A DNA stretch of 64,000 nt from Heliocybe sulcata. Taxonomy: Eukaryota > Basidiomycota > Agaricomycetes > Gloeophyllales > Gloeophyllaceae. Location: NCBI GenBank assembly GCA_004369045.1, contig ML213527.1, forward strand, positions 269,652 to 333,651, in the 5' to 3' direction. Of the stretch, positions 12,854 to 63,752 are shown piece by piece (position 1 is the first letter of the stretch; every line of letters starts with the position of its first letter). The position numbers were made by a program, and so were the translations under genes. Below the pieces are notes generated by a model. It had not been told where the DNA came from. It was given only the letters and a program-made list of their open reading frames with translations, and did not search any database.

Positions 12854-12939
12854 CCGCTGTCTCCGAGCTTCCTTTGATCACTTGTCCAGCTCTTGTAGTC
12901 TCATTTTAATAGAGCAGTGCTGGTCTTGGTCTGTCGACG

Positions 12940-13794: not shown

Positions 13795-13913
13795 GCAGTG
13801 CCGGAAGGTGAAGTAAACGTCAAATGTGAAGGTGCGCTCGCGTGCGCCCGTCACACCCAAGTTCAAAAGCGCGCGCGGCGCGTCTTCCTCCCTCTTCAGT
13901 TTAGAACCATACG

Positions 13914-16229
13914 ATGTCTACAAGCTCACGCAACGCAAACATCACGCCATCAGGAATCATGTCCTACACATCGATTCCTCACCATCCCCTTCAGCCGCCT
14001 CTGCCTGGTGCAGAACCGGCTCCCTTGGCCAAGTCGACGCAGCTCCTCGCGCGACACCGGCCTCGCTCCTCCTCCCCTCTCGTCCCACCTACTCATCGAC
14101 TTCCTCTTCCTCCTGATCCTCCCTCTAAACCTCCCCACCACAGACAGCTTGCGTCGAAATCTCGCTACCCTGCGAACCGGTACCTCTTGCGGAGTGTCCT
14201 CGTCCACAACCACCACAAGGACGTCCGCCTACGGCTGCAGGAAGCGACGCCCGACCGCGAGAGCGTCTTCGTCAGCCACACGCACCTCTCAAGATCTACG
14301 CAACGTCAGCTGCAGGAGAGTTCTTTGGACAACGAGTACGTTCCAGGCTGTCTTGCTCCCGGGCATCGCAAACGTCGGAGAGACACGAGTCCCGATTCAA
14401 CCTTGCTTCGACGCGTCGACAGCTGTCCAGAGCCACCGCACGTATGGGAAACATGGTTCGAGTGGACCAGTCTCGTCGCTAACCAACAACGGTGCGCTCG
14501 GCGTCAACTGGAGGAACGTTCTCTCGAGCAGGAATACGTTGATGGCTCGCTCGCTCCTGGCTGCCGGAAACGTCGGATAGGCGCGGACCCCGCTTCAGCT
14601 TCACACCAACCCGTCGACTACCATGCACTGTTTCTGGCCAGATGGCGTCGCAAGAACGGGAGGCGGGTATGCACGCCGAGGAGAGTCCTCAAGTATCTTG
14701 TCGGGAGAGATGTCGAGTCGGTGACAGTAAGCTTCTTTCGCTTCCATTTGATGATGCGACGTCCTGAGAGTACCCAAGATTTACGACTTCGACACTGTTG
14801 ATGAGGAAGAGGAGCATCCCGTGTTGGAGCCTTTGGAGATCGAGCCGGTGAGTTGTCTCGCGTGTCGGGTGCTGTATTCTAGCTGACGAGGCAATAGTCT
14901 TTCCTTGACGTCGGCACGTACGACGAACGCTTCGAGGAGCTCATCGACACTTTCGGACAGTGGAGTCTTCGGGATACTTGGGTCTCTCCTGTGACCATGG
15001 ACAAGCTCATCGACGGGCTCTCTCGGTTGTCAATTACGGACCCGTCAACTGCGGTCGAGGAGGTGGACATGACAGAGGGTGAGGACGTACCATCCACCCT
15101 GCCTCCGCCAGCATCGCCGTCCGACTTCCCGATGGCGTCGCCGATGCTCGAGGACGACGTGTTCCCAGTCCAGTCCTCAACCGCTCCTGCACTATCCATC
15201 GCCGTCGTTCAGGCCCCAATCCTCACTGCTCCAGCCGCCGTCGTCCTCGTCCCCTCCGTTACGGCTACAGCACCCTCGGCACCTCCTGTTCCTCTGTCCA
15301 CCGTCCCAGCGGTTGTCGGCCATGTTAGTCCAGCATCGTTGTCGAGGTCCATCGCCCGTGCTTCCGGTCGCAAACAGTGGTCGGCGTCGTCCGTCCTGAA
15401 GGACGCCAGCGCGAAGCATAATCGACCGACGCCGTACACCAGGCCTTCGAAGGAGACCTGCACACCAAGCGTGGACGCGGAAAAGGTGGCTCTCAGTCTT
15501 GTACGAGCGAACGTGCCGCCTCTTCTTCTGCAGTGCGCTTTGACAGAAGACGTCGTGATGGTGCGGGACCGGGTGCTGGGCAAGGTGGGATGCGACGTGT
15601 ACTGATCTCATGGCTTCGACAAGTGTGCCAAAGGGTGGACCGTCGGTGTCGTCGCGCAGATCGTGAAGAGGCGGGAAGTTGTCATTAACGCGTTGGGCGG
15701 TGTGAAGGGGTTCCATGATGTCATGCTCTGGACACTCGGCGTACTGAAGATCGATCAGAAGCTGCTGCCGCTGCGGTACAAGCACCTCGCCGAGAAGGAG
15801 AATCGCCGTTCTCTCGCTGAATTCGCTGCCGCTGCCTCGTCGTCGTTCCGGCAATCCGTCTCAAGATCTCCTGGCGTCGCTCTCCCGACCGATATCCCTC
15901 CCGCTCAATGGCACGACAACGTTGTCCTCGCTGGTCATTTTGCACAAGGCACGTCTCGCTCGTGCTCTGAAGCAACAGTCCCAGGCATGTGCAACCCTCC
16001 GGTTCTCGAATACGACGCTTCTGGCTCCAGCGAGGTGTCGCCACAACCATCGCCTCCAGTTATTGAACAATCGTCACAACCTGCGTCGGAGCCCAGTACT
16101 GCAGCTCCTGCAGCTCCCGAGCCCGAGCCTGCGTCAGAGGCAGTCGATACCGATGACCTGTTTGGGGACGAGGACAAAGCAGAGGCCGGAGACGAGTTCG
16201 ACGCGGCGTTGGACGCGCTCGGCGAGTAG
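13914..16229 (+). pseudogene. Element gene, copy 1, with one premature stop
   Basis: Exons 13914-14726, 14779-14847 and 14898-16229 match the intact gene at 33327-35714 with the same splice positions and reading frames. A TGA at 15603-15605 replaces the TGG of copy 2 (VYWSHGF), which would cut the product to about 529 aa. Downstream the frame stays open to the stop at 16227-16229, so this single nonsense change is the only inactivating lesion seen. Exon 3 is 72 nt shorter than in copy 2; one 36-nt unit of this is accounted for by a tandem duplication present only in copy 2. The domain layout is described under copy 2. The product's function is unknown. Confidence 0.7.
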
Positions 16230-17612
16230 TTCTGTTCTCCTGTTGTATGCTCCTGGTATGTCTGCTCTTTCCCACATCCTCGCGCCACTGTCCTGACAGA
16301 CACCCTCGCAGGCTAGCTCTCACGTGTCGTGAGCACTTATTGGCTGCGGCAGTAGCGATGGATGGTGAGGGGGCGAAGCGGGTTGTGGAGTGGTTTCATT
16401 TCTTTGCATATATTCCTATCTCATTCCATTTAATATCTCTTCCTCTTGTCTCTTTCTTTCATCCCCTTCGTAGATGTGTACTTCTTTCTTCTTCTCTACT
16501 CCTTTCCCATCCAAGCTGGGTCATCGCGTTCACGTGGTACGTGCTACGCTTCCTTCTCGACTTGATTGTTGACTGACACATACTTCCGCTAGGTCCCGTC
16601 TAGCCACCAGCTGTGGTAGCCATTCCAAGCATCCGAGCCTCCAGCTCATCGCTCCTTCTCCGACGACGCTTTGATATTCTTCTCGACTCGCAGCCAGAAC
16701 GATCGTCAGAGCATGGTCCGAACGCTCTCTAGGTAAGTAACATCCTCTTTCTGTTCCTGTCCCACGAGCTCATACTCTCTTTAGGACCCACCGTTCGACG
16801 GCTGCACCCTGACGTAGCTTCGCTCATCGACTCCCCGACTCCTCATCGGACGACACCTCACTCGACTCTTCTCGCGACACGAACACCTCTAGCGGTGATG
16901 GCAGCTGCGCACGCCGAGGCGACGCTGGGACCTACTCGCGGTAAGGTGACGGTTGATCCTGTTCTCTTTGACAAGGCGGCTCCGACGGCGCGGCGGTGGG
17001 CGGGCTCCGACGCGATTGTTGGATGGGGGCTCGGGCGTTCTCGTAGGATACCGGCCGGCGGGAGGGTGTCTTATCCCCTCTTTTGACTGGCGACCGCTCC
17101 GCTTGGATTCTCCAGCCCCCTGTGCTCTCATTAAGCCACTAATGCGCTCGGTGAGTCCGTGCTGTTCTTTGAGACGAGAGGACGCTGTTGCTGGTCCGTT
17201 TGAGCTGTGGTTACTGGTGTTGCGGTAAGCGGGCAGCTGTTTCCATAACCCCTCTCTCGCCTCCATCAGCTGCTAGAGGTTTGGGCCCGACATCGGCCCC
17301 ATCAATGTTTGTGTCTCGTGAGACAGCGAGAGTCTTTCTTGTCCCTTTGGAGATGGACATCCTCGACGGCGTGGCTTTCGAAGGTCAATCATCCTTCCGT
17401 TAGGTCTACCATCAAGAAGTTTCATGTCATTTCGTCGGACACCAGCAGGCAGTTAGGCATTGCTAGGATGGGATTGGAGATTTTTTTGCGTCTGCCTTTT
17501 CTCTTAGATTACAGCCTATCCGCCAGCCTATGCGGTTATTCGTAGTGTATCACCTAGTTCCGTTTTGTACTTTACAGCCTAATCTATGTCGCTCCCCTCT
17601 GGAGGGGTTGCA
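16230..17612 (+). other. Conserved 3' tail of element copy 1
   Basis: About 1.38 kb after the element gene stop, nearly identical to 31958-33326 reversed. It contains intron-like segments (for example GTAAGTAACATCC...TTTAG at about 16733-16784). A 63-codon frame at 16895-17086 (MMAAAHAEATLGPTRGKV) differs from its partner at 32486-32677 by only two residues. Because all frames are conserved this closely, conservation alone does not prove that it encodes a protein. It may be a 3' UTR, an alternatively spliced end or a second small gene. Confidence 0.45.
17595..17608. repeat. Terminal imperfect palindrome of element copy 1
   Basis: CCCCTCTGGAGGGG, one mismatch from the perfect CCCCTCCGGAGGGG in copy 2, lying 4 bp inside the shared right edge (TTGCA). 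It could form a 6-7 bp hairpin. Confidence 0.6.
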
Positions 17613-17936
17613 TCAGACCAAGTCTCTCAGCGTGACTTGCGAAATTCCGGGCTCTCCATAGGCAGACACTCACACGCTTACATGCACACTTCGACAGAAG
17701 AGCCCACGGTATGCATAAAGTGGCTCTATCATCCCACCTTGCTTTGTGAGAACCTCATCTTCACTGTTGCGCCGTAGCTGGGCAATTTCACCAAGACACT
17801 ATGTTCGGACCGAGGACAGAAACAACTGATATAGATAGATTATGGCTAGGTATATATGTGGATTGCAGTATTGTCTTCTGAGCGTACGTCCTTGTCTACG
17901 TCTAGGAGTATATGAATATATGAACAGAAACCCCCC
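17613..17936. other. Short spacer between element copy 1 and kinase gene
   Basis: About 320 bp with no recognisable gene. It includes the 3' flank of the minus-strand kinase gene. Confidence 0.4.
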
Positions 17937-20924
17937 TCAATTCACGACCCTCTGCACGCCATCCATCAGCATCCCACTCCCACCAAGCATCGGCGAATGG
18001 ATACCCTCCAACCTCCAGTGGTCCTTAAGTCGGCTGTAGATGAGCCTAAAGGTCGACACCGCGCCCTTCTCCTGAATCAGCACCATTGCGCACGAGACCC
18101 CCGTCCCCGCCACGTTCTTCATGCTGCTCTTTGCCAGCATCGAGCTGGCATGCGAACTCATCCGGCTCGAGGACACAGGCACCTGTGGTGGCACAAACCT
18201 CGCAGCCGAGCCTGCTTGTCCAGCTTGGATGGGCGAGAACTCCACGCGAAAGCGCACAGACTTCTGGAGGACTATGCCCATCTGGTCGACAATATCGTCC
18301 ATACGGCATTTGAGTACGCCTGTGCCCTCCGAGTCTTCCATCATCACGAATACCCCGGCCTCTTCGAGAACACGGACCGTCTCGCGCTGCGCGCTGAAGA
18401 TGTCGTTACACGAGTACAGGACGTAGCTCTGCTTCCAGCTGAAGAGGTTCGAGAACCAGCCCTTGAATTCGCCGACAACGGGAGAAGCGAGGAGTGAAGC
18501 CGACGCGTTAGGAGACATCAATGGGGAAGCTTTGCTGGACGACGAGAAGGTGGACCGTCTGCTCATGGGTGGCGCCATGAAATCAAGGGCAGGGGCTAAT
18601 CATACGCAGTCGATCAGTGATCATGCCTATATGAGTAGTACTGCAGTAAGAGACTCACGGCGATGACGTCGCTCCCTTCTCTCCTTCCCAACCTCCGCAG
18701 AAAACGCGATACGCCCAGCACTCCCGCTCTTACCGCCGTTCATCTTCGCAAAGCCTAGTCCGCCCGAGCTCTGCATCGGGTTGTTCGCCGTATACCGATT
18801 ACAATTCTCCTTGTCTCCGCCATCCTCACGGTTGGAGGACGCTAGCCAACACTGTGATTGTCCCCGCGCGACGGGAGACTCAGGAACATACGCCTGCGCC
18901 CGAGCGTAAGGATGCACATAGTCCGCATGCTCGTACTCCGGCTGATACGCGAAAGGATGAGGATGTCCTATGTGCGTGTTGTCCCTGGGGCCCAGCACGT
19001 GTCCATAGCCACTTATCTGGCAGAGAACATCGTCGATATTCCTCTGCTGCATATCCACGTTCGGCGCCTGATGACCAGAGCCAGAGTCGGCGCCACTATA
19101 CCCAGCCCCAGAAAGCAGAGGCATAGACCCAGTCGCTCCAGGATACTGCGGCACAGGCGCATGCACAAATTCTCGACCAGCTGGACCAGACATAAGCAGG
19201 AAATCATGATAGTGATGAGCCCGGTGAGCGACTTGAGCAGGTGACATACTAGCAGGTGCAGACACGAAGACATCGTGAGGATCAGCGTGGAAAGCAGGAG
19301 CCGTGGCGTTGCGAGCCATCGAGGGCGCTTCCGTGTTCGGGCGGAGCACACCAGGAACAGACGGACCAAGGATAGGACTCCCAGTTGACTGGGAACGAGC
19401 AGACATCGAAGGACAAGCAGGCCTAGGTCTAGGTCCCATAGGTGAGACTGGCTTCGAGCGTTGCGGAGACAACGCGGGCATTGGTATTGGCGGCATAGAC
19501 ATCAGTTGGCCAGAGGCAGGCGGAGCTGTCGACATGCGCACGGGTCGTAACCTCTGAGGACGCTCGATATCAAGAGTCAGCGATGTTTTCGGCTTGGGCG
19601 AGGGAACGACATAAGGCTTCATAACAGCCTTCTCCTGTTCCCTAATGGTAGCATTCTGGATGTCCATGAGAATCCCTCGCTCTTGCAGGGCGCACTCGCG
19701 GTGACGAGCAAGCAGGAAGTAAAACGCCTTCGCAAGAGAGCCATATCCCGGTGCACTCAGCAGATCAAGCTTGATAACTTCAACGTCAGCGTTCTTGCCC
19801 CAGATGACGCGCAGAGACTCGAGGAGCTCCCCGTCAATATGTGCTGGTGAGAGCAGAGGCTCAGCAAGTTCCGCTACGGACGGTGCCCGAATGTAGGTGA
19901 TACCGGGAGTGTCGTTCTGCAGCCATGGATGCGCGAGAATCTCAGGCATCTGCGTAACAAAGGTAAGAAAATGTGATAATCACATACAAGAACAAAGACC
20001 ACTTACAGAGATACGTTTGGTGACGTCCACAACCAACATCCGCGAAATCAAGTCCTTAGCTTGAGGATCGACATAAGCAGGCACTTCATACTTGCCGACC
20101 TTGACCTTGCTCAAGAGCGTCCGGACGTTCTTGTCGTCAAAAGGAAGCCGACCAGTCAAAAGAGCGAACAGAATAACGCCGCAGCTCCAGATATCAGTAG
20201 CAGTGCCTTCGTACTTGAGTCCATTGACGATCTCAGGGCTAGCATAGTGAGGACTGCCGCAGCTAGTATCCAGTTGCCTGTCAGGAGGAGCAAAAGCAGC
20301 CATACCCCAGTCAGCGATCTTGACAAGCGGAGGGTTAAACGAGTGGATGAGGATATTCTCAGGCTTGAGGTCACGATGGATAATAGAGAATGTATGCGCG
20401 TAGTTCAGGCCGTAGACGATCTGCTTGAAGTACGCGAGCGCTTGGAGAGGGCGAAGCTTCCCATGGTTGACGAGGTAATCAAAGAGTTCTCCGCCTTCGA
20501 CGTACTCCAGAATGAGATAGAGTTCCTTGTCGCCCTCGTAGACATCGTATATGCGCATGATGTTCGGGTGGTTCATGAGCTTCATCATCGTGATCTCTCG
20601 GTCGACCCCGAGGCGCTGCTTCTCGGACTTGGCCTGTTGCGTCGAAAGAGAGGCACGGCTGTTGACTATAGGCTGGAGTGGGAGGATCTTCACGGCCGCT
20701 AGCTGGCCTGTGCGGCGGTGTTTGGCAATCTTGACGCGTCCGCTCGCGCCCTTGCCGACGCATTCGCCGATGACCCAGGGCCCGACATACTTGGGGTCGT
20801 CGGGAAAGTCAAACGCGTTCTTGCCTGCCGCGGCCTTCTCTTTCTGCCAGCGCGTGCCGAGAGGGGCGTTGTACTGGACAGGGGGTGCACGAGGAGGGCT
20901 GTTCGGGACGTTCTTAGAGGACAT
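17937..20924 (-). CDS. Ser/Thr kinase of the Gin4/Hsl1/Nim1 family
   Basis: The start is the ATG at 20922-20924 and the stop is at 17937. The kinase domain spans about residues 45-310: glycine loop GECVGKGASGRV, ATP lysine in AAVKIL, HRDLKPEN catalytic loop, metal-binding motif DWG (IADWGMAAF), activation segment SCGSPHYASPEI, DIWSCGVILF, and LISRMLVVDVTKRIS. Exon 2 starts MPEILAHPWLQN, adds the GYGSLAKAFYFLL helix typical of septin-associated kinases, then a long Pro/Ser-rich disordered region. Exon 3 (about 18595-17937) holds a KA1-like C-terminal domain (FKGWFSNLFSWKQSYVLYS ... CAMVLIQEKG ... FRLIYSRLKDHW). The predicted length is about 950 aa. In yeasts these kinases localise to the bud neck, organise septins and regulate Wee1. 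KA1 binds acidic phospholipids. The exon 2-3 junction (63-bp intron) was inferred from frame. Confidence 0.9.
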
Positions 20925-23073
20925 TACGAAAGAATAGTAAGATAGACTAGTAATGGTATAGAGTGTGAATTAGAGAAAGCGGTATAGAGTAGAATGTTGG
21001 TCGTCGTAACCGCCGCTGCTGTCGCCGCCGTAGATGTCGTCGACCAGGACGAAGGGAGAGAAAGAAAGAACGCGAACTTGGACGTTTTGTAGGGCGTGAC
21101 GCCATGTGACCGGATGTGACCGGCTTTCTCGGCCTGATCGTGGCCCATGACTTCACCGGTGCTCTTCTCTGCCGATGCATGTCAATTTGTTGTGTCCTCC
21201 CACGTTTTCTTGACATAGAACCAATTTCAGCCGCGTTGTGGGTCCTTGTGGGCGCCAGCATCGCGGGACTTCCATCCGGACCGCGTTCCCATACCGGAAA
21301 GGGCCGGGGAGCGGGTTGCCACAGCCAGTACTCTGAGTCGCAGGCACCAATCCGTGAGTCTTTGCTCATATGCTCACAGAAAAGATCTCACCCGCGACTA
21401 CACTAGTGTGTTTTTCGTACTCCTGGCAAACGTTACTGTCTGGCAGGTCTGGCCGCGAATGCTCCCCCTAGAACAGCGAATTTCCGCAAACTTGTTTCTC
21501 GTACATGCGCTCGAGAGAAGTTCCAACAGGATTGAGAATTCGTTTTCTGACCCCATTTGTCTCTCCGAGCGAACATCTGCCGGAAAACATCCATAGGCTC
21601 TTTCATTGACAATATCTGTGACTTGCCACTCACCTGAATTTCGGTTGGGACTCAGTTACTCGTGACTTCGCCACGGAGCTGGCGCTTCGCATGCTCGGTC
21701 TGAAGAAGCGCAGAACTCTTGGGTGATGGCGCTACACTATTCCTTTCACGACTGGTGGCCATGATGGTAGACGATAGCGCAGGCGGACCCGTACTTGATG
21801 CAAGAGAACAACACCATGCTCCTCATTATCCGAACCGATAATACAACCATCGGAATGCTGAAGCCGGATCCAGTCATCGCACAAGCCATCGTTGATTTCC
21901 AGTATAAAAATGCAGCCCGCAATCGCCTTGGTTTGGACTGGCTGGATAACATGGCGGTTCTTGCTATATATCGCTGTACTCGGCACTCGTCCCTCTCGCC
22001 TACGAAGTCTCAGTCACTCAGCGACCGAACGAGGCCGTCGATCTGGGTCGTCATCCTATCTCGCCAACGAAAGGGCGGAGTGCGTATTGGCATGGTGCTC
22101 TGGCCACCTGGACGAAGGAATGGAAGTTCCTGAGTTGAGGCAGGAGATTATGCAACACTACAGGGGGGTCAGGAGATCTTTGAAGGCATGCTGGACCCGT
22201 CTCTGTCTGACTTAAGTAGGTACGGTCAGTTCCCATACGCGGGCGGCTCACACCAGGCGCCGAACTTTTCTTCCTGCTCACGAGGACTCATTGCGCACCT
22301 CCGTCAGCTAGAATGGCCTCAATGACTGACATTCGGTGCACGGCTCGTGTCCCGATGCTTCCAGCGTCCTCCAAATCATGTGCTCACATCAAAATGTCTG
22401 GAGTCGTGGTCAGATGCTGCGAATGCGCTCCAGCCCTCGAAGGCAGGGTTGAATCTGGGCAAGCGAGGCTGCTCTGAAAGCCTCGCCACCTCCACATATT
22501 ATCCGCGGTTAGAACTTTGCAACACTGAGCAGTGACTTCCGCGTTATGCCTCCCGTTGCTACTCACACGGCATGGTGCATTCATCCTGATGCGGTCGATC
22601 CGGAAGATATCCTGGGAAGCATACGAAGATAGTACCTGTCAAGTTTCTCTTGAGCTCCTCTAATCGCACTTCTCTTTGGAATGCCGTACGTGTGGTATGA
22701 ACGCACTATACTCCATGTTGCGCCACCCAACGTACCTCACTGTCTGGGGTCCGCTTGCTGACAGATGCCAAAGTGGCTGAAGCCTGTGCTGACCGCAGAC
22801 GACAGGTTCGCAGAGCAACTAGTTGAGCGTTGTTTACGGACGGCGAGCTCTGACATGATCCTACGCATGCGTGTATATTCTTTCTTGGCATGGCCGTGCG
22901 ACGGAGGTGAGAAGGGCAGAGAGCACCCCGGGAATACAGTGACGGTCACGTCACGCCGGCACTGGTGTCATGATTCCCATAGACGGTTTTACGCCGGTAC
23001 CCCTTCTCGCTGTGGAAGGAGTCGTCCCAATATCAGGCGGTGTACCCAACTCTTTTGCTTCCTGACACCGAGC
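20925..23073. other. Intergenic interval upstream of kinase and SKG6-like gene
   Basis: About 2.1 kb holding the promoters of two divergent genes. Open frames of 70-140 codons on both strands have no recognisable motif. No repeats or RNA genes were seen. Confidence 0.4.
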
Positions 23074-24551
23074 ATGCTTTCCTCCCTCGCCGTGCTCGCC
23101 GCCCTCTGCCCGTCGCTGGCAGCGGCATACTCATTCGACATCACGACCACGCCTCGACAATGCCAGACCCTCGACGTGAGCGTCACCGGGTCGGGCTCCC
23201 CGCCCTACTCCCTCTTGATCATCCCATTCGGCCCGTCGCCATTGCAGAATAACATAGAAGCGCGGACGATTGTGCAGCAGAACTTCTCGGGGAGCTCGAC
23301 GTCATTTCAGCTCAAGTACCCGACCAACTCGCAGTTTGTGGCGGTGGTGAGTGGATGTGTTGTAGTCGTGCGAGCGAGCGAGACTAACGTACAGCCGCGA
23401 TTATGTAGATGAGCGATAGCTCCGGTTTCGGTTCGGGTGGAACGAGTGTAACAGCTACCGTTCTCCAGAGCAGCGATTCAAGTTGTTACGACGCAAGCAC
23501 GAACGTGCAACCAGACTGGACCTTCAAAATCGACCCTCCCAATCAACTAGTGCAATGCCAGGCCGCTCGATTGTGGTGGGACCAGGGGGATCCCCAAGGG
23601 TACGTGCCTTCATCTTTGCCATTCGCCGGACCCTCACGACAGCGACAACCAGTGACCCCTCCTTCTTCGGCGTCATCCCTGGCGGCGAGTCCTTCTCCAT
23701 CCCTTTGGGTGCGCTCTCGGATGTTGTTGGCACCGGCCGCGGCTTCAGCTGGACGCCCTCCATCCGCGGCGGCACGGAAGTTATTCTGACATCGGGTGAC
23801 AACCGCGGCTTCGGCGTGGGCGGAAGTGTCGTCTTTACAGTCAGCTCTGGGACAACGAATGATGGTTCGTGCCTGAGTAATAACTCTCCTTCGTCCACCC
23901 CCGGATCCCCTGCCGGCGGCAGCTACCCCACTAGCACGAGCGGCGCGGGGGTCGGCGGAGGAGCCGATACCGGTAATGGCAGCAGTAACGGTGGCAGTGG
24001 AAGCCAGTAAGTAACTTTTACTCCTCCTCTATTCTATAGTAAATTAACATAATCTTCAAAGTTCTAACGTCGGTGCGATAGTCGGCGGTGTAGTCGGTGG
24101 CGTAGTTGGCCTCCTCGCCCTTGGCCTCCTCGGGCTCTTCTTCTACCGCCGACGCCGCTTCCACAAGCGCCCTGTGGACCTCCTTAATGAAGATCCCACC
24201 GACGGACCGACCACTGAGACCCAGCAAGCCTACTACCGTCCAGAACCCTTTGTTCTCCCAGACCCAACGGAGGGCGGCTCAACCGTTGGCGCCGCAGAGG
24301 CTTTTGGAACCCGCGAAGACATGGGGAGCCGGCGCGCGTCGACGACATCCCTCGGTGCAACAAGCACTCTTCCCCCACCAAGCGGGATCGCCAGCTCTAG
24401 AACGGGCAAGTCAGGCAGAGCGCCGTCGCTCAGACCTGTCAACGTTGTGCAGCACGAAGACGCCGGCCCGCCGCCGCCTCAAGAACCCGCGCCTGAGCAA
24501 GAACCCGAGACGGTCGAGCTGCCGCCTGCATATACTAATATTCGCCGATAA
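23074..24551 (+). CDS. Secreted-ectodomain single-pass membrane protein (SKG6-like architecture)
   Basis: The start ATG at 23074 is chosen because it begins a clean signal peptide, MLSSLAVLAALCPSLAAAYS. A longer upstream frame lacks one. The ectodomain has CQTLDVSVTGSGSPPYSLLI, a beta-rich repeat-like module with several cysteines, then a Gly/Ser/Thr-rich stalk near residues 240-290. A single membrane helix (VGAIVGGVVGGVVGLLALGL) is followed by FFYRRRR as a stop-transfer signal. The roughly 140-residue cytosolic tail is Pro/Ser-rich with a PPPPQEP tract and ends YTNIRR (stop 24549-24551). Three short introns lie near 23347, 23600 and 24008. This shape is common in basidiomycetes; wall sensing is a plausible but unproven role. 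Confidence 0.82.
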
Positions 24552-25132: not shown

Positions 25133-27346
25133 CTACTCACTTCTACCGTCCACACCTCCCCTAGTCCTGTCAAGCTGCTCCAGAGCATGAAGCAGATCCA
25201 GCGCCTGATCCGTCCTCCAATCCGTCCCATAAACATACCGGAACCGCTCTACCAATCTGTCTTTCACCTGCAACGCCCCAGGCAACCTCCGGCTATCCAC
25301 CAGCCCCCTCAAGACAGTCGTATATGTCGCAAGGTTCGGCCTGAGCATGTGGGGCGGCGTCTGTTCGTTCACGGCCGCGCTGACGACCATGTTGTCCAGC
25401 TGCTCGAGGATCATGAGGCAGCGGTTAGTGCGGCCCGCGGCTGCGTACACGCCCACGAGCGCGGTGTAGTTGTAGAGGTCGGGCTCAATGCCGAGGGACG
25501 CCATGTCCACGAAGATGCGGGCAGCACGCCGAGGTGTAGAGTGCTTGCCTAGGGCTTGGATGAAGGGAACGAAGTAGTAGGGGCTGAGCATTGCCCGTGG
25601 GTTAGGGACTGCAGGGATGGAGTGATCCGGCAGCCTTGCTAGTACGTCGGGATCTTCTCTCGCAGTCTTGCCCATAGCAGACCCTTGAGGCTCTCTTGGA
25701 GCGGGCGAAGATTCCGCGTCGGAAGACTCTCTTACCCAGGTGATGTCGTTCCCAGCCTCGTTTACAGCAGAAGAATCAGAACCGGAGGATATTTCCATCC
25801 TGGCATCAGCTATCTTCCGCATCAAATGAGCATAAAGCACTTCCGCCCCATTCAGCGAATAATGATGATCCAGCAATGCCTTCCACGCATACACTGTGTC
25901 TGTAGGAGTTGGATCTAGCTTCCGTATCCCTTCCACCTTGAAGCCCCTAGCAGAGGCATACCGCTCGAGAGTTTCCTCTACCAGAAGCTTCGGAACTGCC
26001 GTCAAGTGGAAGTAGCTGCTGTATATGGCCAATGCATATACTGGCTTCCGCCAATGGAGATGGTATACCATCTCCGCCATAGCCCATGTGCGAATGGTAA
26101 TGGTACGCCGCATGGCTCGCTTGTAGAGTAGTTCCACAGCACGAGTGCGTTTCAAAGATCGATAGGCTAAGAGGAAGTTGGCGATGGCTTTGGCGGAAGG
26201 AGGGTAGCGGGAATTCATTGTTCTACGGAGATTGCGCAGCCAGGTGACGACATTAACGTCCTCGCGAAGGTCCTCTTCATCGAAGCTGAGGCCCAGTACT
26301 CCTTCGTCGCCAGCCGGTATGCTCGCGTAGGCCTCGTGCAGTACCGTTGGCATCGGGAGACTCCTGGCTTGCAGATGCTTATACAGGCGAGTGATCGTCC
26401 TTTGGTCAATCGTTATATCCCGAGCAGCAGCATCTTTCAAGAATTGCACGGCTAGATTATGGCGCCCATTCCATTGCTGGCTCCTGATAGCAATGCCATA
26501 GAGACGAGCGAGAAGCGAGCGATCAGCCATATTCGCTCCAGCTTCATGCTCGTGGACGGTGATGAGTTCTTGCAGGAAGCGGGTGGCGTGCTCTGGCGAT
26601 GCCAGCTGCATGATACGCCGAATACACCCGAAGGGCAGGTCCTCGGTGTATCCCTTCGAGATGCATATCATCGCGAAAGCCATCCCTATGCGCAAGTCCG
26701 GAGACTGTTCTGTGTCGGTGTTATCCAATTCGCTAAGGAGAAATTCCGAGATAGCTTGCAGGTGACCTTGGGTCTCCGTCGTAATTGGACTTGGATCCGA
26801 ATAGGCAGGAACGAGGGAAAGCCATGCAGCGAAGAGCCGGATACGATCAGTTGCACCGGCCGTCTGTAAGGCATACAGTGCTGGTAATGCATAGACAGGA
26901 TCCTGCTGTATGTGAACTCCGAGATTCAGCAAGTCCGTCCGTATCCCCTCAGCATCTACGTATCTGCCTTCCTTAACAGAGCGATATAACGGATAGCAAG
27001 CTCCTTGCTGAGCATGGGATACCTCTCGTTCTGCTGCGGAGAGTAGTGGCTGAGAGATGTGCGCCTCATGAACAGCGTATTCCGCGCTATCTTCCTCGAA
27101 TATGGACGTATCAGGAGCATTAGAAGGATAAGGGAGTTCTTCAACCATTTTCTTGAACTGATTCTCGGTTGACCAAGACGATACGGTACGCCAGGCATTT
27201 TGGTTGCGAGACCAGGCATGAGAAGACCAATCCAGCAACCTGAGACGAACACTCGTGCGAGCCGCAGCTGAGAGGACGGCTGATGTTGCTGTGAGGCTCC
27301 ATGCCAACATACGGTCTCGCCAACGTCGACTGGGATTGGAAAGCAA
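25133..27346 (-). CDS. Mitochondrial pentatricopeptide-repeat protein
   Basis: Uninterrupted 737-codon frame, start 27346, stop 25133, one of few intronless genes here. The N-terminus is rich in Arg, Ser and Ala with few acids (first about 35 residues), as in mitochondrial targeting signals. Helical repeats fill the rest. The clearest PPR unit is ARIFVDMASLGIEPDLYNYT ALVGVYAAAGRTN, followed by a second with MLRPNLATYTTVLRGLV. Weaker 35-residue helix pairs are visible upstream (for example AMRRTITIRTWAMAEMVYHL). PPR proteins bind organellar RNA and help its maturation or translation. The specific target cannot be told from sequence. Confidence 0.8.
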   Translation of the reverse strand: MLSNPSRRWRDRMLAWSLTATSAVLSAAARTSVRLRLLDWSSHAWSRNQNAWRTVSSWSTENQFKKMVEELPYPSNAPDTSIFEEDSAEYAVHEAHISQPLLSAAEREVSHAQQGACYPLYRSVKEGRYVDAEGIRTDLLNLGVHIQQDPVYALPALYALQTAGATDRIRLFAAWLSLVPAYSDPSPITTETQGHLQAISEFLLSELDNTDTEQSPDLRIGMAFAMICISKGYTEDLPFGCIRRIMQLASPEHATRFLQELITVHEHEAGANMADRSLLARLYGIAIRSQQWNGRHNLAVQFLKDAAARDITIDQRTITRLYKHLQARSLPMPTVLHEAYASIPAGDEGVLGLSFDEEDLREDVNVVTWLRNLRRTMNSRYPPSAKAIANFLLAYRSLKRTRAVELLYKRAMRRTITIRTWAMAEMVYHLHWRKPVYALAIYSSYFHLTAVPKLLVEETLERYASARGFKVEGIRKLDPTPTDTVYAWKALLDHHYSLNGAEVLYAHLMRKIADARMEISSGSDSSAVNEAGNDITWVRESSDAESSPAPREPQGSAMGKTAREDPDVLARLPDHSIPAVPNPRAMLSPYYFVPFIQALGKHSTPRRAARIFVDMASLGIEPDLYNYTALVGVYAAAGRTNRCLMILEQLDNMVVSAAVNEQTPPHMLRPNLATYTTVLRGLVDSRRLPGALQVKDRLVERFRYVYGTDWRTDQALDLLHALEQLDRTRGGVDGRSE

Positions 27347-28616
27347 GCTATTCAGCGCGATTTAACGGCTGAGAAAATGAAGTAGCGCTCACCCCTCTGC
27401 GTATGGATGCCCTGGACGTCTAGTATAATTGCAATGACTTCTCGTAGTTCGCTTTAACGCTTTGGTAGCGGCATTAGCTGACCGGCTGCAATCAGTGCAG
27501 TCCTACCCAAGCTATAGCCTGAGCAAGTCGTCGCGATCAGTGGCAAAGTCGGTCCGCTCGCCATGCGACTCGTCCGCGTGCGAGCGACTCCCACGCGGAC
27601 GAGGATACTTGAATGCCGCCCACTGCTCCTCTGCTCCTTACGGTGCCCTGCCTGCTTACCCTTCTACCTGGGTCCTCTATCAAGAGCCAGTGATATGTTA
27701 ATAAACTACACAACGACGTTCGTATAGTGTCTTCCATCAGCTTCACAGTCGGAGCTCGAGTACATCCCTTCGTTCTCGATCTCGACTTGCGAAATCCATC
27801 TTCGAATCATGACTCCGCTCTGGATAAATTCTTTGTGAAGAAAGACAGAGAAGATATGTTACTCTATGCTCTACACCACTGGCGGAACAACATCACGCCC
27901 TTAAAGAGGTCTCCCGAAGTCTCTCGCCAACACTTGCAGCGCAACATAATATGGCTCAAAGGCTGTGCACTTACATCTCGTGCGCAGTGCCAGGTTTCCA
28001 TCGCACTGTAAGCTGCCCACTTGTGTAAACTGCGATCTCAGAATGCTCGCATTGTATCCAGATCTTATCTGGGTGATGCCCAAGCACAGATACTTTGCAA
28101 CTGTGCAGTCTCACCGGCGTGCACCGACTAGTGCGGCATAGTCTACTGCTTTGTGCTATCATTCTCCTACTCTGGTGGTGTTTCATCAGGGACCCAGAAT
28201 CATTCATCCCAACTTACCCTGAACGCATCGCCAACGCAAGATCGCAACATATACTGAATTCGAGCAGTACGGCTCTGAGTAGAATGTCAGGCGCAGCTCC
28301 TACTCGCTTCAAGTTTAGTGAACGAAGCGAAGTGAGACAGCATACCTGAGTTCAGGATCATATTTGATCAGTGGCGCTTCCTGATATATCAGGGTATCAG
28401 GAACGGAGACCCGACATATCCACTAGCTTTAGATGACTATCAGCATAACAGACCTCCGTGAGTTTGTTTTCCAGTGCTGCAATCAACCTTATCTTACTCG
28501 GACATTCTGACACTCAGGGAAATCAGAATCACTGACCGAAACGAGTACTTACTGTGAGCCCTTATATCATGCCATTCCATGTCCATTAGACCTGAGACAG
28601 GACTACCTCTGTCACT
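27347..28616. other. Gene-free interval with one strong hairpin
   Basis: About 1.27 kb between the PPR gene start and a plus-strand DUF6534 gene. Only short frames are present. It contains the 12-bp inverted repeat listed separately. Confidence 0.4.
27569..27603. repeat. 12-bp perfect inverted repeat with 11-nt loop
   Basis: CTCGTCCGCGTG at 27569-27580 and its exact complement CACGCGGACGAG at 27592-27603, separated by 11 nt. It lies about 220 bp upstream of the minus-strand PPR start codon, so it could be a transcription-factor site pair or an RNA hairpin in a leader. Confidence 0.7.
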
Positions 28617-30481
28617 ATGTCTTTGTCTCTCGATACCTATGGTGCCTACCTCACCGGTGTCACTCTCTCTACGGCGTACGCCTTCCAATTTATTAGCATG
28701 GTTTCGATTAGTGACTAAAGCGTGTCCTCAGGATGTACGGCATCACATGCGCTCAGGTGGCGTCGTATTACTGGGCATACCGCGACGACAATCGTGCATT
28801 CAAGGGACTGGTAAGTGCTACACCGTTCCAAATCAGTTTCTACGAGGCGCTGATAGCTGATAGGTCGGGTTTATATGGATGGTGAGCTACGTCGATTTCT
28901 CCTTGGTACAAATGTTTCAAGCGATATATCAGACGGATAGCTTGCAGCAAGCTCTGCTGCTGCACTCCGTGTATTTCTTTCTCGTTATATGCAGGGAGAA
29001 GGGCGACCTTGTAGCCTTATTGTCCGCCAATTGGTTAGTCAGTTCTCGGACTAACGCAGGGTCCGTGACTATGCTCTTCCTTGCTAACTCGAAGAACAGG
29101 AGTATGATTGTTAGTCCTCCGTCTGCTCTTAGGGCCAGTCATGACTGACGAACTTGCTGTCCCAGTCCATGATTATCCCAGGGGTAAACACGCATTCCAG
29201 TGATACGTGCTCGGTCCTCTAACATCATCATGTTTAGGAAATTTCTATTTCTCTAGTCGAGTGGTAAGTCTGCCAGTTTGAGTCGTGCAAGTGTCTGCTC
29301 ATGCGCTTCGTCAGCTACTTTATCTGGAGGACACTTAGATGTTTGTCTGTTTATCTACTTGAGGTCCCCACGGTGACGACAGCTGTGCAGTTTGGAAAAC
29401 AAATTACATACTCTTCATGGTATGATGCCATCTTTTGTTATGCCGGTGCCCGGGCTTACAACTTGTAGCTTATACCGTTGGTCTCTAGCACTGGTAAGTG
29501 ACATACATATGTTACGCTTTTTTTTCTGTCCTTGACCAGTCTCAGTCGGAGCATTTCGTAAGTCACTAGTACACAGTATCACTCTCCATTTTGCTAATAG
29601 ATTGCACTCAGTCTACATTGGGAAACTGTATGTCCAGTTCTGCTTGGGATATACGCTAGGGAACCAACCTCGGGTTCGATACAGGTTCCGTTACCCATCA
29701 TTCAACGAGGCCACCAGGGCACCTGTGAGTTATCCGCTTTCATGAAGTATCCTTGGAGACTTCGACTCCTAAGCAGCCGACTTCTGCAGTGGGAAATCTG
29801 GCTCGCTGCGGGCAGTCGAGTGGTCACGGACGTGGTCGTTGCGGCCGTCATGTCTTACAAGCTCTATACGTCGCGTAGAGTTACGCTCGCACATCGGTAC
29901 GCCTTCCTAAGTCGCTGGTGGAGGCTACTGACCACTCATTCTGCAGGCATCTTTTGACTACTCTGACAAACTACACGATTGCAACCGGCGTCTTGAGCTG
30001 GTAGGATCTATCCGTTATACTCCCTCGAACACGTCGAAAACTGATCTGACAATCATACTCTAGCGTCTTCGCCATCACGTATCTTATAACGGTGCGCTGA
30101 GCCTAGTTTGTTTTTGCTGAGTCTGGGGCACTCAGGAGTCAGCTCTTCTTAGTACATCATCATGCCTTTCAGCATGTTCTACGTCGGAGTATACTGTGTC
30201 CATACGAAAAGTACGTCCTCGTATTTGTCTTGGACTTGCCTGTGTACATTGCTGACCGACGCATGCTGTTCCAGTATATGTAAATTCCATGATGGCCACG
30301 TACGTGTTCCTATATCCTCTTGTCGGGTTATAAATCTGAGCCAAGGTTCTACAGCCTGAACAGCCGTCAAAGGCTTCGAGAAATGAGGGGACGTGTGATC
30401 AACGTCTCCTCTGACTCAGAGCCGGGCTCTGGAGCATCAGGGCGAGGCCATTCCAGGGCTGCCTTGCCGCCCAAGGTCTAG
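28617..30481 (+). CDS. DUF6534-type multi-pass membrane protein
   Basis: The start ATG at 28617 gives MSLSLDTYGAYLTGVTLSTA. It is spliced to MYGITCAQVASYYWAYRDDN, FKGLVGFIWMVSYVDFSLVQ and LLLHSVYFFLV. Later exons carry SYFIWRTLRCLSVYL and TVTTAVQFG (29320-29395), WEIWLAAGSRVVTDVVVAAV near 29800, LTTLTNYTIATGVLSC near 29955, YIIMPFSMFYVGVY near 30150 and YVNSMMAT near 30280. The final exon contains LNSRQRLREMRGR (the family's LNAR-like end) and stops at 30479-30481. At least ten small exons are needed, some under 40 nt, so boundaries in 29040-29290 are uncertain. Seven helices are predicted. It is related to, but well diverged from, the gene at 6434-8551. Function is unknown. Confidence 0.75.
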
Positions 30482-30567
30482 ATATTCGGGAAAATACCCC
30501 ATATAACGTGTTCTGAAAGAGAGCTAACCAACCGCGCGCAGCTTACATTATTATATCTATACATCTA

Positions 30568-31824
30568 CTATTTGCTATCCGTCCAAGCCTGATGCCGTCT
30601 TACCAGTTCCCGAACAATATCCTCCTCGATTTCCCGGGTACGCACGTCCTTTTCGCTTAATAATAACCAAGATTCCTTGAACGTCCCGTCGTTGGGAGAG
30701 ACGAATACGACTTCGAACTTTCTACGATTCAGGTCGTTGCCGATGACCACTTGATGCCCGTATCTTTCAAGTGCTTGACGGCACTTGGGCAGAAGGAGTT
30801 GTGGGTCGGTTTCCAACTAGATAGCACGTTGGATATATTCGTTAGCAAGCGCATAGAGAATAGGAACGAGTTATGTGCCTTAAAAGATACGATGAATCCT
30901 TCTCTTGTCCATTCGTCGACCATAGGCTTGAGAACCTTCGGTACTTGATCCATCTCGATGTGCAGACTGCCCTTGCCAGATTGGATCTTATGCTCGGACT
31001 ATCATATATATAAGTTGTCAGAAACGCCGTAAGTCATGATGAACAACACAATACCCACCATCTTCTGTCTAGGCAGGAAGAAATCGCTGACAGCAGCCGC
31101 CAAGTAATACATTGCATCTCTCCTCATTTCCGACAGCTCTTGACTGACAGCCCGGAGAAGCCATAGGTAATCATTCACCGTCACAAAAGTGAGAGTGAGC
31201 AGTGTGCCTTGTCGCTGGACTGTCTTGTACGCAGTAAGCACGGACAAGAGATCTGCCCTCTTCTCCGGAGTCACCGTAATCTTGGGGTTGGACAAGGAGT
31301 CCTCGATCTCAAGGAAGTCCAAGAATGGATTGGTGGAATGAGAATAATGTCTGCTGAAGGGTTGCAGACTGAACTGTCGGTGCATGAATATGACAGCGTA
31401 GCCCGCTTTTAGAAAGTACTCCGCCGACGTTGCCCCTCGCGTACCTAGCAAAGATGTCAACAAGAACCTATTGATGAGCCTAAAAGGTACTTACCAGCAC
31501 TGAAGTTATCCAGGAACCGTACCCTGCAAGGCGTCATATGCAGACGTCCGGTCATCGTGCAACGGTGCTCACATATTACGTTCCAGCGGCACCGTCGTCC
31601 CTCCACTCTACGAAATGCAGTTAAATAAGCGACGTGCAACCCATGTCGGGCAATCTGCACGCACTCACCGTGACCAGTACGACTTTGTTTCCCAAGCCCG
31701 TCTGCCTCCGAACGAAGTCGCGAGCGCTTGCTCGGTCATGGTCGAGCGACGCCGGTGCAGTTTGCGTCGCAAAATACGCTTCCGCTGAGAATGGGGTAGA
31801 CTCTTTACTGTCCACGACGCTCAT
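30568..31824 (-). CDS. CAB2: Phosphopantothenate-cysteine ligase
   Basis: Second step of CoA synthesis from phosphopantothenate: joins 4'-phosphopantothenate and cysteine using a nucleotide triphosphate. The start is the ATG at 31822-31824 ([18 protein letters not shown]). Exons give [17 protein letters not shown], then [30 protein letters not shown], the conserved nucleotide- and substrate-binding core. [18 protein letters not shown] is a strong family marker, followed by [16 protein letters not shown] and [14 protein letters not shown], ending [10 protein letters not shown] (stop 30568). At least four short introns are present. The predicted length is about 350 aa, as in yeast Cab2. The stop lies 86 bp from the stop of the convergent DUF6534 gene, and the start is only 133 bp from the edge of element copy 2. 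Confidence 0.92.
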
Positions 31825-31957
31825 AGCTTGGATCTACAGTCGGTGTACGACATTAGCATCGCGAAGTCACATCCCGCCGGCCCGGGTCTCACGGTCGTCC
31901 GTCCCGAGCAGATGTGGTTCCTCTCAAAGTAGGATCACGACTGGATATTGTTTAGAG

Positions 31958-33326
31958 TGCAACCCCTCCGGAGGGGAGCGATAAAGATCAGGCTGTAAAG
32001 TACAAAACGGAACTAGGTGATACACTACGAATAACCGCATAGGCTGGCGGATAGGCTGTAATCTAAGAGAAAAGGCAGACGCAAAACAATCTCCAATCCC
32101 ATCCTGGCAATGACTAACCGCCTGCTGGTGTCCAACGAAATGACTTGAAACTTCTTGATGGTAGACCTGGCGGAAGGATGATTGACCTTCGAAAGCTCCG
32201 CCGTCGAGGATGTCCATCTCCAAAGGGACGAGAAAGACTCTCGCTGTCTCACGAAGCACGAACGTTGATGGGAGGCCGATGTCGGGCCCAAACCTCTAGC
32301 AGCTGATGGAGGCAAGAGAGGGGTTATGGAAACAACTGCCCGCTTACCGCAACACCAGTCACCACAGCTCAAACGGACCAGCAACAGCGTCCTCTCGTCT
32401 CAAAGAACAGCACGGACTCACCGAGCGCATTAATGGGTTAATGAGAGCACGGGGGGCTGGAGAATCCAAGCGGAGCGGTCGCCAGTCAAAAGAGGGGATA
32501 AGACACCCTCCCGCCGGCCGGTATCCTACGAGAACGCCCGAGCCCCCATCCAACAATCGCGTCGGAGCCCGCCCACCGCCGCGCCGTCGGAGCCGCCTTG
32601 TCAAAGAGAACAGGATCAACCGTCACCTTACCGCGAGTAGGTCCCAGCGTCGCCTCGGCGTACACAGCTGCCATCACTGCTAGAGGTGTTCGTGTCGCGA
32701 GAAGAGGCGAGTGAGGTGTCGTCCGGTGAGGAGTCGGGGAGTCGATGAGCGAAGCTACGTCAGGGTGCAGCCGTCGAACGGTGTGGTCCTGAAGAGAGTA
32801 TGAGCTCGTGGAACAGGAACAGAGAGAGGATGTTACTCACCTAGAGAGCGTTCGGACCATGCTTCGACGACCGTTCTGGCTGCGAGTCGAGAAGAATATC
32901 AAGGCGTCGTCGGAGAAGGAGCGATGAGCTGGAGGCTCGAATGCTTGGAATGGCTACCACAGCTGGCGGATAGTCGGGGACCTAGCGGAAGTATGTGTTA
33001 GTTGACAATTAGCTTGAGAAGGAGGCGCAGCACGCACCACGTGAACAAAATGCCCCAGCTTGGATGGGAGAAGAGTAGAGAAGAAGAAGTACACATCTAC
33101 AACGGGAATGAAAGAAAGAGACAAGAGAAATAAATATCAAATGGAATGAAATAGAAATAGATGCAAAGAAATGAAACCAAGCCGCTCCAAAACCTTCCTC
33201 GCCACTCATCACTGCTACCGCTCGAGACATGAGAGGGGTAGCCTGCAGGGGTATTTATGAGGATGACAGAGTGAAGATATAAGAGGAATTGCAGACATAC
33301 CGGGGGCATACAATACAAGAGCAGAA
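31958..33326 (-). other. Conserved 3' tail of element copy 2
   Basis: Partner of 16230-17612, nearly identical. It contains the 63-codon frame at 32486-32677 and intron-like segments. Coding status is unresolved, as for copy 1. Confidence 0.45.
31962..31975. repeat. Terminal perfect palindrome of element copy 2
   Basis: CCCCTCCGGAGGGG reads the same on both strands and lies 4 bp inside the sharp shared edge. Confidence 0.65.
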
Positions 33327-35714
33327 CTACTCGTCGAGCGCGTCCAACGCCGCGTCGAACTCGTCTCCCGCGTCTGCTGTTTCGTCATCCGCAAACAGGT
33401 CATCGGTATCGGCTTCGTCGGAGGGAGGCTCGGGCGTGGGCGCGAGTGCTGCAGGAGCTGCAGTACTGGGATCCAACGGCGGCAGTGACAATTGTTCGAC
33501 GACTGGAGGTGATGGTTGTGGCGACTCCTCGCTGGAGCCAGAAGCGTCATACTCGAGAACCGGAGGGTTGTACATGACTGCGACTGTTGCTGCCGACCAC
33601 GAGTGAGATATACCTTGCTGAATATCCGCGGGAGCTGCAGAATCGCCAGCGAAGACAACGTTGTCGTGCCATTGAGCGGGCGGGACACCAGTCGGGAGAG
33701 CGACGCCAGTAGATCCTGAGACGGATTGCCGGAACGACGAGGAGGCAGCGGCAGCGAATTCAGCGAGAGAACGGCGATTCTCCTTCTCGGCGAGGTGCTT
33801 GTACCGCAGCGGCAGCAGCTTCTGATCGATCTTCAGTACACCGAGTGTCCAGAGCATGACATCATGGAACCCCTTCACACCGCCCAACGCGTTCATCACC
33901 ACTTCCCGCCTCTTCACGATCTGCGCGGCGACACCGACGGTCCACCCATTGGCACACTTGTCGAAGCCATGAGACCAGTACACGTCGTATCCCACCTTGC
34001 CCAGCACCCGGTCCCGCACCATCACGACGTCTTCTGTCAAGGCGCACTGCAGAAGAAGAGGCGGCACGTTCGCACGTACAAGACTGAGAGCCACCTTTTC
34101 CGCGTCCACGCCTGATGGGCAGGTCTCTTTCGAAGGCCTCGCGTACGGCGTCGGTCGATTATGCTTCGCACTGGCTTCCTTCAGGACGGACGACGCCGAC
34201 CGGTGTTTGCGACCAGAGGCTCGGGCGATGGACCTTGATGTTGACGAAGGAGACGAGATAGGATTGGCGTGGCCGACAACCACGGCGACCGCGGGCAGAA
34301 CAACAGGAGGTGCCGAGGATGCTGTAGCCGTAACGGAGGGAACGAGGACGACGGCGACTGGAGCAGTGAGGATTGGGGCATGAACGACGGCGACTGGAGC
34401 AGTGAGGATTGGGGCATGAACGACGGCGACGGAGGGTACAGGAGCGATTGAGGACTGGACTGGGAACTTGTCATCCTCGAGCATCGGCGACGCCATCGGG
34501 AAGTCGGACGGCGATGCTGGCGGAGGCAGGGTGAATGGTACGTCCTCACCCTCTATCATGTCCACCTCCTCGACCGCAGTTGACGGGTCCCTAATTGACA
34601 ACCGAGAGAGCCCGTCGACGACCTTGTCCATGGTCACAGGAGAGACCCAGGTATCCCGGAGACTCCACTGTCCGAAAGTGTCGATGAGCTCCTCGAAGCG
34701 GTCGTCGTACGTGCCGACGTCAAGGAAAGACTATTGCCTCGTCAGCTAGAATGCAGCACCCGACACGCGAGATCACTCACCGGCTCGATCTCCAAAGGCT
34801 CCAACACAGGATGTTCCTCTTCCTCATCAACAGCGTCGAAGTCGTAAATCTTGGGTACGCTCAGCACGTCGCATCATCAAACCGAAGCGAAAACAGCTTA
34901 CTGTCACCGAATCGACATTTCTTCCGACCAGATACTTGAGAACTCTCTTTGGTGTGCAGACCCGCCTCCCCTCCTTGCGACGCCATCTGGCCAGAAACAG
35001 GGCATGGTCGTCGACGGGTTGATGTGAAGCTGAAGCGGGGTCCACGCCTATCCGACGTTTCCGGCACCCAGGAGCGAGCGAGCCGTCAACGTATTCCTGC
35101 TCCAGACAACGTTCCTCCAGTTGACGCCGAGCGCACCGTTGTTGGTTAGCGACGAGACTGGTCCACTCGAACCATGCTTGCCATACGTGTGGTGGCTCTG
35201 GACAGCTGTCGACGCGTCGAAGCAAGGTTGAATCGGGACTCGTGTCTCTTCGACGTTTGCGATGCCCGGGAGCAAGACAGCCTGGAACGTACTCGTTGTC
35301 CAAAGAACTCTCCTGCAGCTGACGTTGAGTAGATCTTGAGAGGTGCGTGTGGCTGACGAAGATGCTCTCGCGGTCGGGCGTCGCTTCCTGCAGTCGTAGG
35401 CGGACGTCCTTGTGGTGGTTGTGGACGAGGACACTCCGCAGGAGGTACCGGTTCGCGGGGAAGCCGCCTTTGGACGCGAGCTGTCTGTGGTGAGGAGGTT
35501 GAGAGGAAGAAGGAGGAACAAGAGGAAGTCGATGGGCAGGCGGGACGAGAGGGGAAGAGGAGCGAGGCCGGTATCGCGCGAAGAGCTGCGTCGACTTGGC
35601 CAAGGGAGCCGGCTCTGCACCAGGCAGAGGCGGCTGAAGGGGATGGTGAGGAATCGATGTGTAGGACATGACTCCTGAAGGTGTGATGTTTGTGTTGCGT
35701 GAGCTTGTAGACAT
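33327..35714 (-). CDS. Element-borne 761-aa protein of unknown function (intact copy)
   Basis: Exons 34902-35714, 34781-34849 and 33327-34730, with 52- and 50-bp GT-AG introns, give a 761-aa protein from MSTSSRNTN to ALDALDE. I do not recognise the family. Visible features: a Pro/Ser-rich start; a basic region (residues about 90-260) with two related units, RQLQESSLDNEYVPGCLAPG and RQLEERCLEQEYVDGSLAPG, each followed by an RKRR cluster; an acidic linker (DEEEEHPVLEPLEIEP); FLDVGTYDERFEELIDTF; a long Pro/Ala/Val-rich low-complexity stretch; a globular segment ALTEDVVMVRDRVLGKVGYD ... GGVKGFHDVMLWTLGVLKID; and an acidic DDLFADDE-type tail. Conserved frames and introns in both copies support a real protein. 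Basic blocks with acidic ends suggest a nuclear or chromatin role, which is inference. Confidence 0.7.
34351..34422. repeat. 36-bp tandem duplication inside the element gene (copy 2 only)
   Basis: Two adjacent 36-bp units encode VHAPILTAPVAV twice. Copy 1 has a single unit (VQAPILTAPAAV), so the duplication arose after the copies separated or was lost from copy 1. The frame is kept. Confidence 0.8.
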
Positions 35715-35833
35715 CGTATGGTTCTAAACTGAAGAGGGAGGAAGACGCGACGCGCGCGCTTTTGAACTTGGGTGTGACGGGCGCACGCGAGCGCACCTTC
35801 ACATTTGACGTTTGCTCGGCCTTCCGGCACTGC

Positions 35834-63720: not shown

Positions 63721-63752
63721 GTTGTACCAAAGCTTGCAAGCTTTGGTACAAC
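63721..63752. repeat. 32-bp perfect palindrome
   Basis: The left half is GTTGTACCAAAGCTTG and the right half is its exact reverse complement, with no spacer. It ends exactly at 63721 and 63752, because the next base pair does not match. It lies about 265 bp upstream of the SWI3 start codon. Confidence 0.85.

What the first reader, a model, noticed from the sequence alone, without database searches (positions are those of the whole stretch)
13795..35833. Two inverted copies of an unrecognised 3.8-kb element carrying a spliced 761-aa gene
Seen: 13795-17612 and 31958-35833 match in opposite orientation through the same three-exon gene and a 1.35-kb tail, with shared intron positions and sharp right edges. 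Known: transposons normally carry a recognisable transposase, RT or Rep, and here I find none. Inference: this is either an unknown transposable element or gene-capturing unit, or a recently duplicated lineage-specific gene. This is the best candidate for an undescribed system in the window.
Basis: partly seen in the sequence, partly recalled or inferred. Interest (0 to 1): 0.8.

Follow-up and report, generated by a model that had tools for sequence, protein, structure and literature searches.

The report
Inverted duplicated fungal gene segment
A stretch of what looks like a fungal chromosome holding one gene of unknown function was copied in reverse some 14 kb away, with the tail of the gene next door dragged along, so it is most likely an ordinary duplicated segment whose two copies kept partly overwriting each other, not a new mobile element.

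Summary
In detail: 13795-17612 and 35833-31958 match in opposite orientation at about 90%, through the same three-exon gene (761 aa in copy B; 737 codons with one in-frame TGA in copy A) and a 1.4-kb tail. The transposon reading is not supported. The left "edge" is a sharp change in divergence, not the end of homology: colinear homology goes on leftwards for another kilobase at about 54% identity, above shuffled controls, and reaches into the last exon of copy A's neighbour, a formyltransferase gene. Copy B thus carries a decayed fragment of a neighbouring gene, which points to A's place as the source and to an inverted DNA-level segmental duplication. The 3.8-kb core is far more alike (CDS dS 0.14, far tail 4% different) than its own old flank and patchy inside, as gene conversion would make it. 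Terminal inverted repeats, target duplications and Helitron ends were tested and not found beyond chance; no mobile-element domain appeared in the ORFs scanned. The 761-aa protein matched nothing in Pfam or PDB sequences; structure models were too poor to use. No fungal genome collection was available, so copy number and orthologues are untested.

The parts
13914..16229 (+). Copy A of the three-exon gene (exons 13914-14726, 14779-14847, 14898-16229), 737 codons with in-frame TGA at 15603-15605
   Evidence: a 75-nt in-frame candidate intron 15585-15659 could remove the TGA, so pseudogene status is open
33327..35714 (-). Copy B of the gene (exons 35714-34902, 34849-34781, 34730-33327), 761 aa, no internal stop
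   Evidence: dN/dS between copies 0.45 over 738 aligned codons
13795..17612 (+). Homogenised core of copy A
31958..35833 (-). Homogenised core of copy B
16230..17612 (+). Tail of copy A: 78.1% identical to B in 16230-16600, 95.9% in 16601-17612; no RNA family, no Pfam or PHROGs match for the tail ORFs searched
12716..13794 (+). Old, diverged left part of the duplicated segment at the source locus (end of the formyltransferase gene and the DNA after it)
35834..36885 (-). Old, diverged left part of the duplicated segment at copy B, with a decayed formyltransferase 3' fragment at 36885-36759
11764..12853 (+). 3' part (several exons) of the formyltransferase gene next to copy A; the whole gene was not modelled
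   Evidence: Formyl_trans_N 7.1e-15; Formyl_trans_C 0.0018 and 0.00074 on two ORFs, both just under Pfam's cut-off

Best explanation
An inverted, DNA-level segmental duplication. A segment of about 4.9 kb, from the last exon of a formyltransferase gene to 17612, was copied in reverse to the place now at 31958-36885. Shown: colinear homology on the left, the truncated neighbour gene at B, shared introns, a sharp right end. Inferred: A's place is the source, because the neighbour gene is whole-looking there and a decayed end piece at B. Afterwards the left kilobase drifted to about 54% identity, while the 3.8-kb core with the gene was homogenised, probably more than once, by gene conversion between the two inverted copies (inferred from divergence). 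The gene encodes an unrecognised protein rich in proline, serine, valine and alanine; copy B is open, copy A has one in-frame stop or a spliced-out segment.
For: Left-flank homology: best score 70 against a maximum of 19 in 150 dinucleotide shuffles; the outer, formyltransferase-end piece scores 29 against a maximum of 17 in 150; right flanks 12 against mean 12.7. Flank global identity 54.2% over 1030 sites against 42.0% mean and 44.1% maximum in 30 mononucleotide shuffles. Formyltransferase domains beside copy A. Core much closer than flank: dS 0.141, dN 0.064; far tail 41 mismatches in 1012 sites. Patchiness: longest identical run 210 bp against a maximum of 153 in 2000 permutations; five longest runs sum to 554 against a maximum of 424. 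Both introns are present in both copies, so not a retrocopy.
Against: The 195 bp directly left of the core align no better than chance (41% and 43% in the two windows from 13600), and so does 13100-13199 (41%), so the old flank is not continuous with the core. The permutation test treats all sites alike, so varying constraint could give part of the patchiness. No outgroup copy was available, so conversion was not separated from a second, partial duplication. Both cores end 5 nt after a 14-nt palindrome, which a mobile element could also show.
Confidence: 0.85

Rival explanations
1. Segmental duplication as above, but the close core comes from a second, younger duplication or replacement covering only the core, not from repeated gene conversion.
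For: One sharp step from 43% to 95% identity at 13795.
Against: Needs a second copy to land colinear with the old one; the core itself is patchy, 64% to 100% per 100-bp window, which one recent event does not explain easily.
Confidence: 0.08
2. A non-autonomous mobile element or gene-capturing unit (Helitron-like) of 3.8 kb carrying the gene.
For: Sharp right edges ending ...CCCCTC(T/C)GGAGGGGTTGCA in both copies, found nowhere else in the window at up to 3 mismatches; the core begins GCA and ends GCA in both copies, which could be read as a 3-nt repeat; single flanking bases agree, T/T at A and C/C at B; fungal Helitrons carrying genes of unknown function are published (PMC4289320, passages).
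Against: Homology continues past the left edge into a neighbouring gene. The ends are GCAG and TGCA, not TC and CTRR. A direct repeat of 3 nt or more turned up for 86.7% of 2000 random pairs of places in the window and of 4 nt or more for 41.1%. Longest exact inverted repeat between first and last 120 nt is 6 nt (A) and 5 nt (B); 500 random pairs average 6.6. Hairpin little better than shuffles, z -1.33 and -1.24. No mobile-element domain in the ORFs scanned.
Confidence: 0.04
3. The core evolves slowly through selection alone, without conversion.
For: CDS dN/dS 0.45 shows some constraint.
Against: Synonymous sites (dS 0.14), introns (88.5% and 94%) and far tail (95.9%, closer than the exons at 93.4%, 95.7% and 91.4% taken together) are all far closer than the 54% flank.
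Confidence: 0.03

Closest known systems
Duplicated genes under gene conversion (concerted evolution)
   Same: Low divergence in the converted stretch beside an old diverged flank, in patches; the review PMC3924837 (abstract and passages) describes divergence kept low by conversion and advises judging paralogues by collinearity and flanking sequence
   Different: That review says that in yeast the stretch under concerted evolution is in almost all cases restricted to coding sequence; here about 1 kb of apparently non-coding tail is included
Helitrons of Pleurotus ostreatus, HELPO1/HELPO2 (PMC4289320, passages)
   Same: Can carry genes of unknown function; subterminal palindrome
   Different: No TC/CTRR-like ends here, no RepHel found in the ORFs scanned, and homology runs past the left edge
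Helitron2-type FoHeli elements of Fusarium oxysporum (PMC5148889, passages)
   Same: A palindrome near one end
   Different: No inverted repeat between the two ends beyond chance; no outstanding hairpin at the left end (z 0.57)

Membership tests
Segmental duplication (DNA-mediated) | Copied stretch spans gene borders and non-coding DNA, introns kept | tested here: met
   Includes a formyltransferase 3' end, intergenic DNA, the intron-bearing gene and its tail
Concerted evolution by gene conversion | Silent-site divergence far below that of the rest of the same duplication, in patches | tested here: met
   dS 0.14 against a flank with 46% differences; run-length permutation test
Concerted evolution by gene conversion | Paralogues closer to each other than to orthologues in sister species | not testable with these tools
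   No fungal genomes held; no genome held for this window
Helitron (canonical) | 5'-TC and 3'-CTRR ends | tested here: not met
   Shared core starts GCAG and ends TGCA; definition from passages of PMC5148889 and PMC4289320
Helitron (canonical) | Insertion between A and T | tested here: not met
   Flanking bases of the shared core are T and T at A, C and C at B
Helitron (canonical) | Hairpin shortly before the 3' end | tested here: inconclusive
   A 14-nt palindrome lies 5 nt before the edge, but folding is little better than shuffles (z -1.33, -1.24)
Helitron (any) | Rep/helicase, in the element or in an autonomous partner | tested here: inconclusive
   None in the window ORFs scanned with Pfam; not all six frames were scanned, and a partner elsewhere cannot be excluded
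Helitron2 / Helentron | Asymmetric terminal inverted repeat | tested here: not met
   Longest exact inverted repeat between first and last 120 nt 6 nt (A), 5 nt (B); random pairs average 6.6, and 90.6% reach A's value
TIR DNA transposon | Terminal inverted repeats | tested here: not met
   5 (A) and 6 (B) of the terminal 20 nt match;
TIR DNA transposon | Target site duplication | tested here: not met
   GCA at both ends of both cores, TGCA in A; not above chance. A duplication lost by decay cannot be excluded
Retrocopy / retroelement | Introns lost, or RT present | tested here: not met
   Both introns in both copies; no RT domain in the ORFs scanned

The most novel reading that the evidence does not exclude
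The 3.8-kb core is a mobile or self-homogenising cassette that spreads a gene of an unknown family, and it happened to lie in a segment that was also duplicated.
Probability: 0.04. Interest if true: 0.6.

Novelty: new member of a known kind. Interest (0 to 1): 0.15.

Why it matters
Mainly as a caution: a sharp identity step beside a gene looks like a transposon edge, but weak colinear homology beyond it, here a broken piece of the neighbouring gene, gives the duplication away. The unrecognised protein may merit a look in fungal databases, and an inverted pair 14 kb apart with a partly homogenised core is a fair case for studying gene conversion in fungi.

Tried and rejected
Copy count in the window's own genome: not possible, no genome held. 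Relatives of copy B exon 3 in IMG/VR and in prokaryote genomes: 13 and 94 stretches matched a pattern, 0 confirmed; neither collection is fungal, so this says little. Pfam on the 761-aa protein at E up to 10: 0 families; exon 3 alone: DUF677 at E 6.2, far below cut-off. PDB sequences at E up to 10: 0. PHROGs: 0 families for each of 4 stretches, two exons of copy B and two tail ORFs. NCBIfam and PADLOC were not searched. Tail as a gene: Rfam 0 matches, whole window at gathering scores and tail up to E 1. A 125-aa minus-strand ORF and a 62-aa plus-strand ORF are open in both copies; by my reading of that output the first differs at 5 residues, with 9 nucleotide differences in its range, the second at 2; too few to judge. 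tRNA scan: 0 genes (bacterial settings, so weak for a fungus). Helitron and TIR readings: see membership test. Literature: five answered searches, listings only except passages of three papers; nothing on this locus in what I saw, but the library cannot be searched by sequence.

Full report
Observation. Self-comparison of the 64-kb window gives one strong inverted pair, 13795-17612 against 35833-31958, 89.8% over 3901 columns. Within it both copies hold the same three-exon gene. My model of copy B is 761 aa; copy A has 737 codons and one in-frame TGA where B has TGG. Gaps in the coding part are multiples of three, third positions change most (87 against 47 and 39), and dN/dS is 0.45 over 738 aligned codons (dS 0.141, dN 0.064), with A's stop codon counted as a change. 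So the gene is very likely real and was under some constraint for at least part of its history. The ratio varies along the gene, from 0.20 to 1.05 in blocks of 100 codons.

The left edge is not an edge. A gentler self-search joined the core to more homology upstream, 12987-17635 against 36648-31935, plus a separate piece, 12716-12843 against 36885-36759. In 150 dinucleotide shuffles each, the left flanks score 70 (shuffle maximum 19), the outermost piece 29 (maximum 17), and the right flanks 12 (mean 12.7, maximum 16). Aligned end to end, the left flank is 54.2% identical over 1030 sites; 30 mononucleotide shuffles gave a mean of 42.0% and a maximum of 44.1%. The piece at 12716-12843 lies in the last exon of a formyltransferase gene, whose ORFs match Formyl_trans_N (7.1e-15) and Formyl_trans_C (0.0018 and 0.00074, both just below Pfam's cut-off). 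That it is the methionyl-tRNA enzyme is my recall, not a result. At copy B the corresponding piece is decayed, and no homology to the part of that gene from 11800 to 12715 was found. Hence B carries the broken end of A's neighbour, and A's place is the likely source.

Why the core looks young. Inside the core, the 5' non-coding part is 95.8% identical, the introns 88.5% and 94%, the exons 93.4%, 95.7% and 91.4%, the near tail 78.1%, the far tail 95.9%, while the flank of the same duplication is 54%. Constraint on the protein cannot explain the silent and non-coding sites. Identity within the core swings between 64% and 100% per 100-bp window, and the longest identical run, 210 bp at 16911-17120, exceeds the longest run in each of 2000 permutations (maximum 153). 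Conversion between the two inverted copies is the simplest reading. Against it, the 195 bp just left of the core look random, and without outgroups a second partial duplication remains possible.

Mobile-element tests. The core ends ...CCCCTC(T/C)GGAGGGGTTGCA, found twice in the window and nowhere else with up to 3 mismatches. The palindrome's stretch folds only slightly better than shuffles (z -1.33 and -1.24). The ends are GCAG and TGCA; terminal 20-mers match 5 and 6 of 20 as inverted repeats. Both cores begin and end with GCA, and single flanking bases agree (T/T, C/C); but 86.7% of 2000 random pairs of places give a direct repeat of 3 nt or more and 41.1% one of 4 nt or more by the same procedure. 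The longest exact inverted repeat between the first and last 120 nt is 6 nt (A) and 5 nt (B), below the random mean of 6.6. Passages of PMC5148889 and PMC4289320 give the Helitron features used as yardstick; TC/CTRR ends and the A/T site are not met. Pfam scans covered selected ORFs and some predicted genes, not all six frames, and showed no transposase, RT or Rep.

Surroundings. Between the copies lie a kinase gene (Pkinase 2.2e-65; best PDB match HSL1, 1.6e-92), a predicted 397-aa protein and a PPR protein. Beyond copy B's right end is a gene that I take, from recall and one sub-threshold Pfam match on one of four ORFs (DFP, E 0.077), for a pantothenate-metabolism enzyme; beyond its left end lies a trehalose-synthase-like glycosyltransferase (TreT_GT1 3e-26). 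Further off are L27A, an MMR_HSR1 GTPase and a SWIRM/ZZ/Myb protein. Gene models are from a simple script of mine, not a trained predictor; it missed the formyltransferase gene and split exon 1 of the 761-aa gene.

What the gene does is unknown. The protein is rich in proline, serine, valine and alanine (10% each), has a diverged tandem repeat in exon 1 (14304-14420 and 14502-14618, 68% in DNA), basic clusters and an acidic end. My best guess from those features is a nuclear, partly disordered protein; this is inference only. No library searched gave a match and the structure models failed.

Verdict. An ordinary inverted segmental duplication with a homogenised core, about 85% likely; a transposable unit about 4%.

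Noticed in passing
118-1869 (-) and 4473-6231 (+): A second inverted gene pair, apparently older: predicted multi-exon proteins, 59% identical DNA over 994 columns. The second was scanned with Pfam: no match above cut-off; the first was not scanned. That they are membrane proteins is a guess from the sequence.
   Followed up: partly
12987-13015 and 36648-36620: Within the decayed left flank 29 bp (CTGTGGCTTGTGGC-Y-TGCACAGCCACAGC) differ at one place between the copies and hold an 8-nt inverted repeat; a possible conserved regulatory site.
   Followed up: partly
34348-34434: A 36-bp in-frame tandem repeat (2.4 copies) in copy B exon 3; copy A lacks 36 bp there.
   Followed up: no
63721-63752: A perfect 32-bp palindrome.
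   Followed up: no
3643-3710 and 27569-27603: Two imperfect palindromes, 78% over 69 columns and 86% over 35.
   Followed up: no
15585-15659: A 75-nt in-frame stretch with GT..AG ends that holds copy A's stop; A and B differ at four bases in it, each changing the protein by my reading, so it could be an intron in A, or in both.
   Followed up: partly
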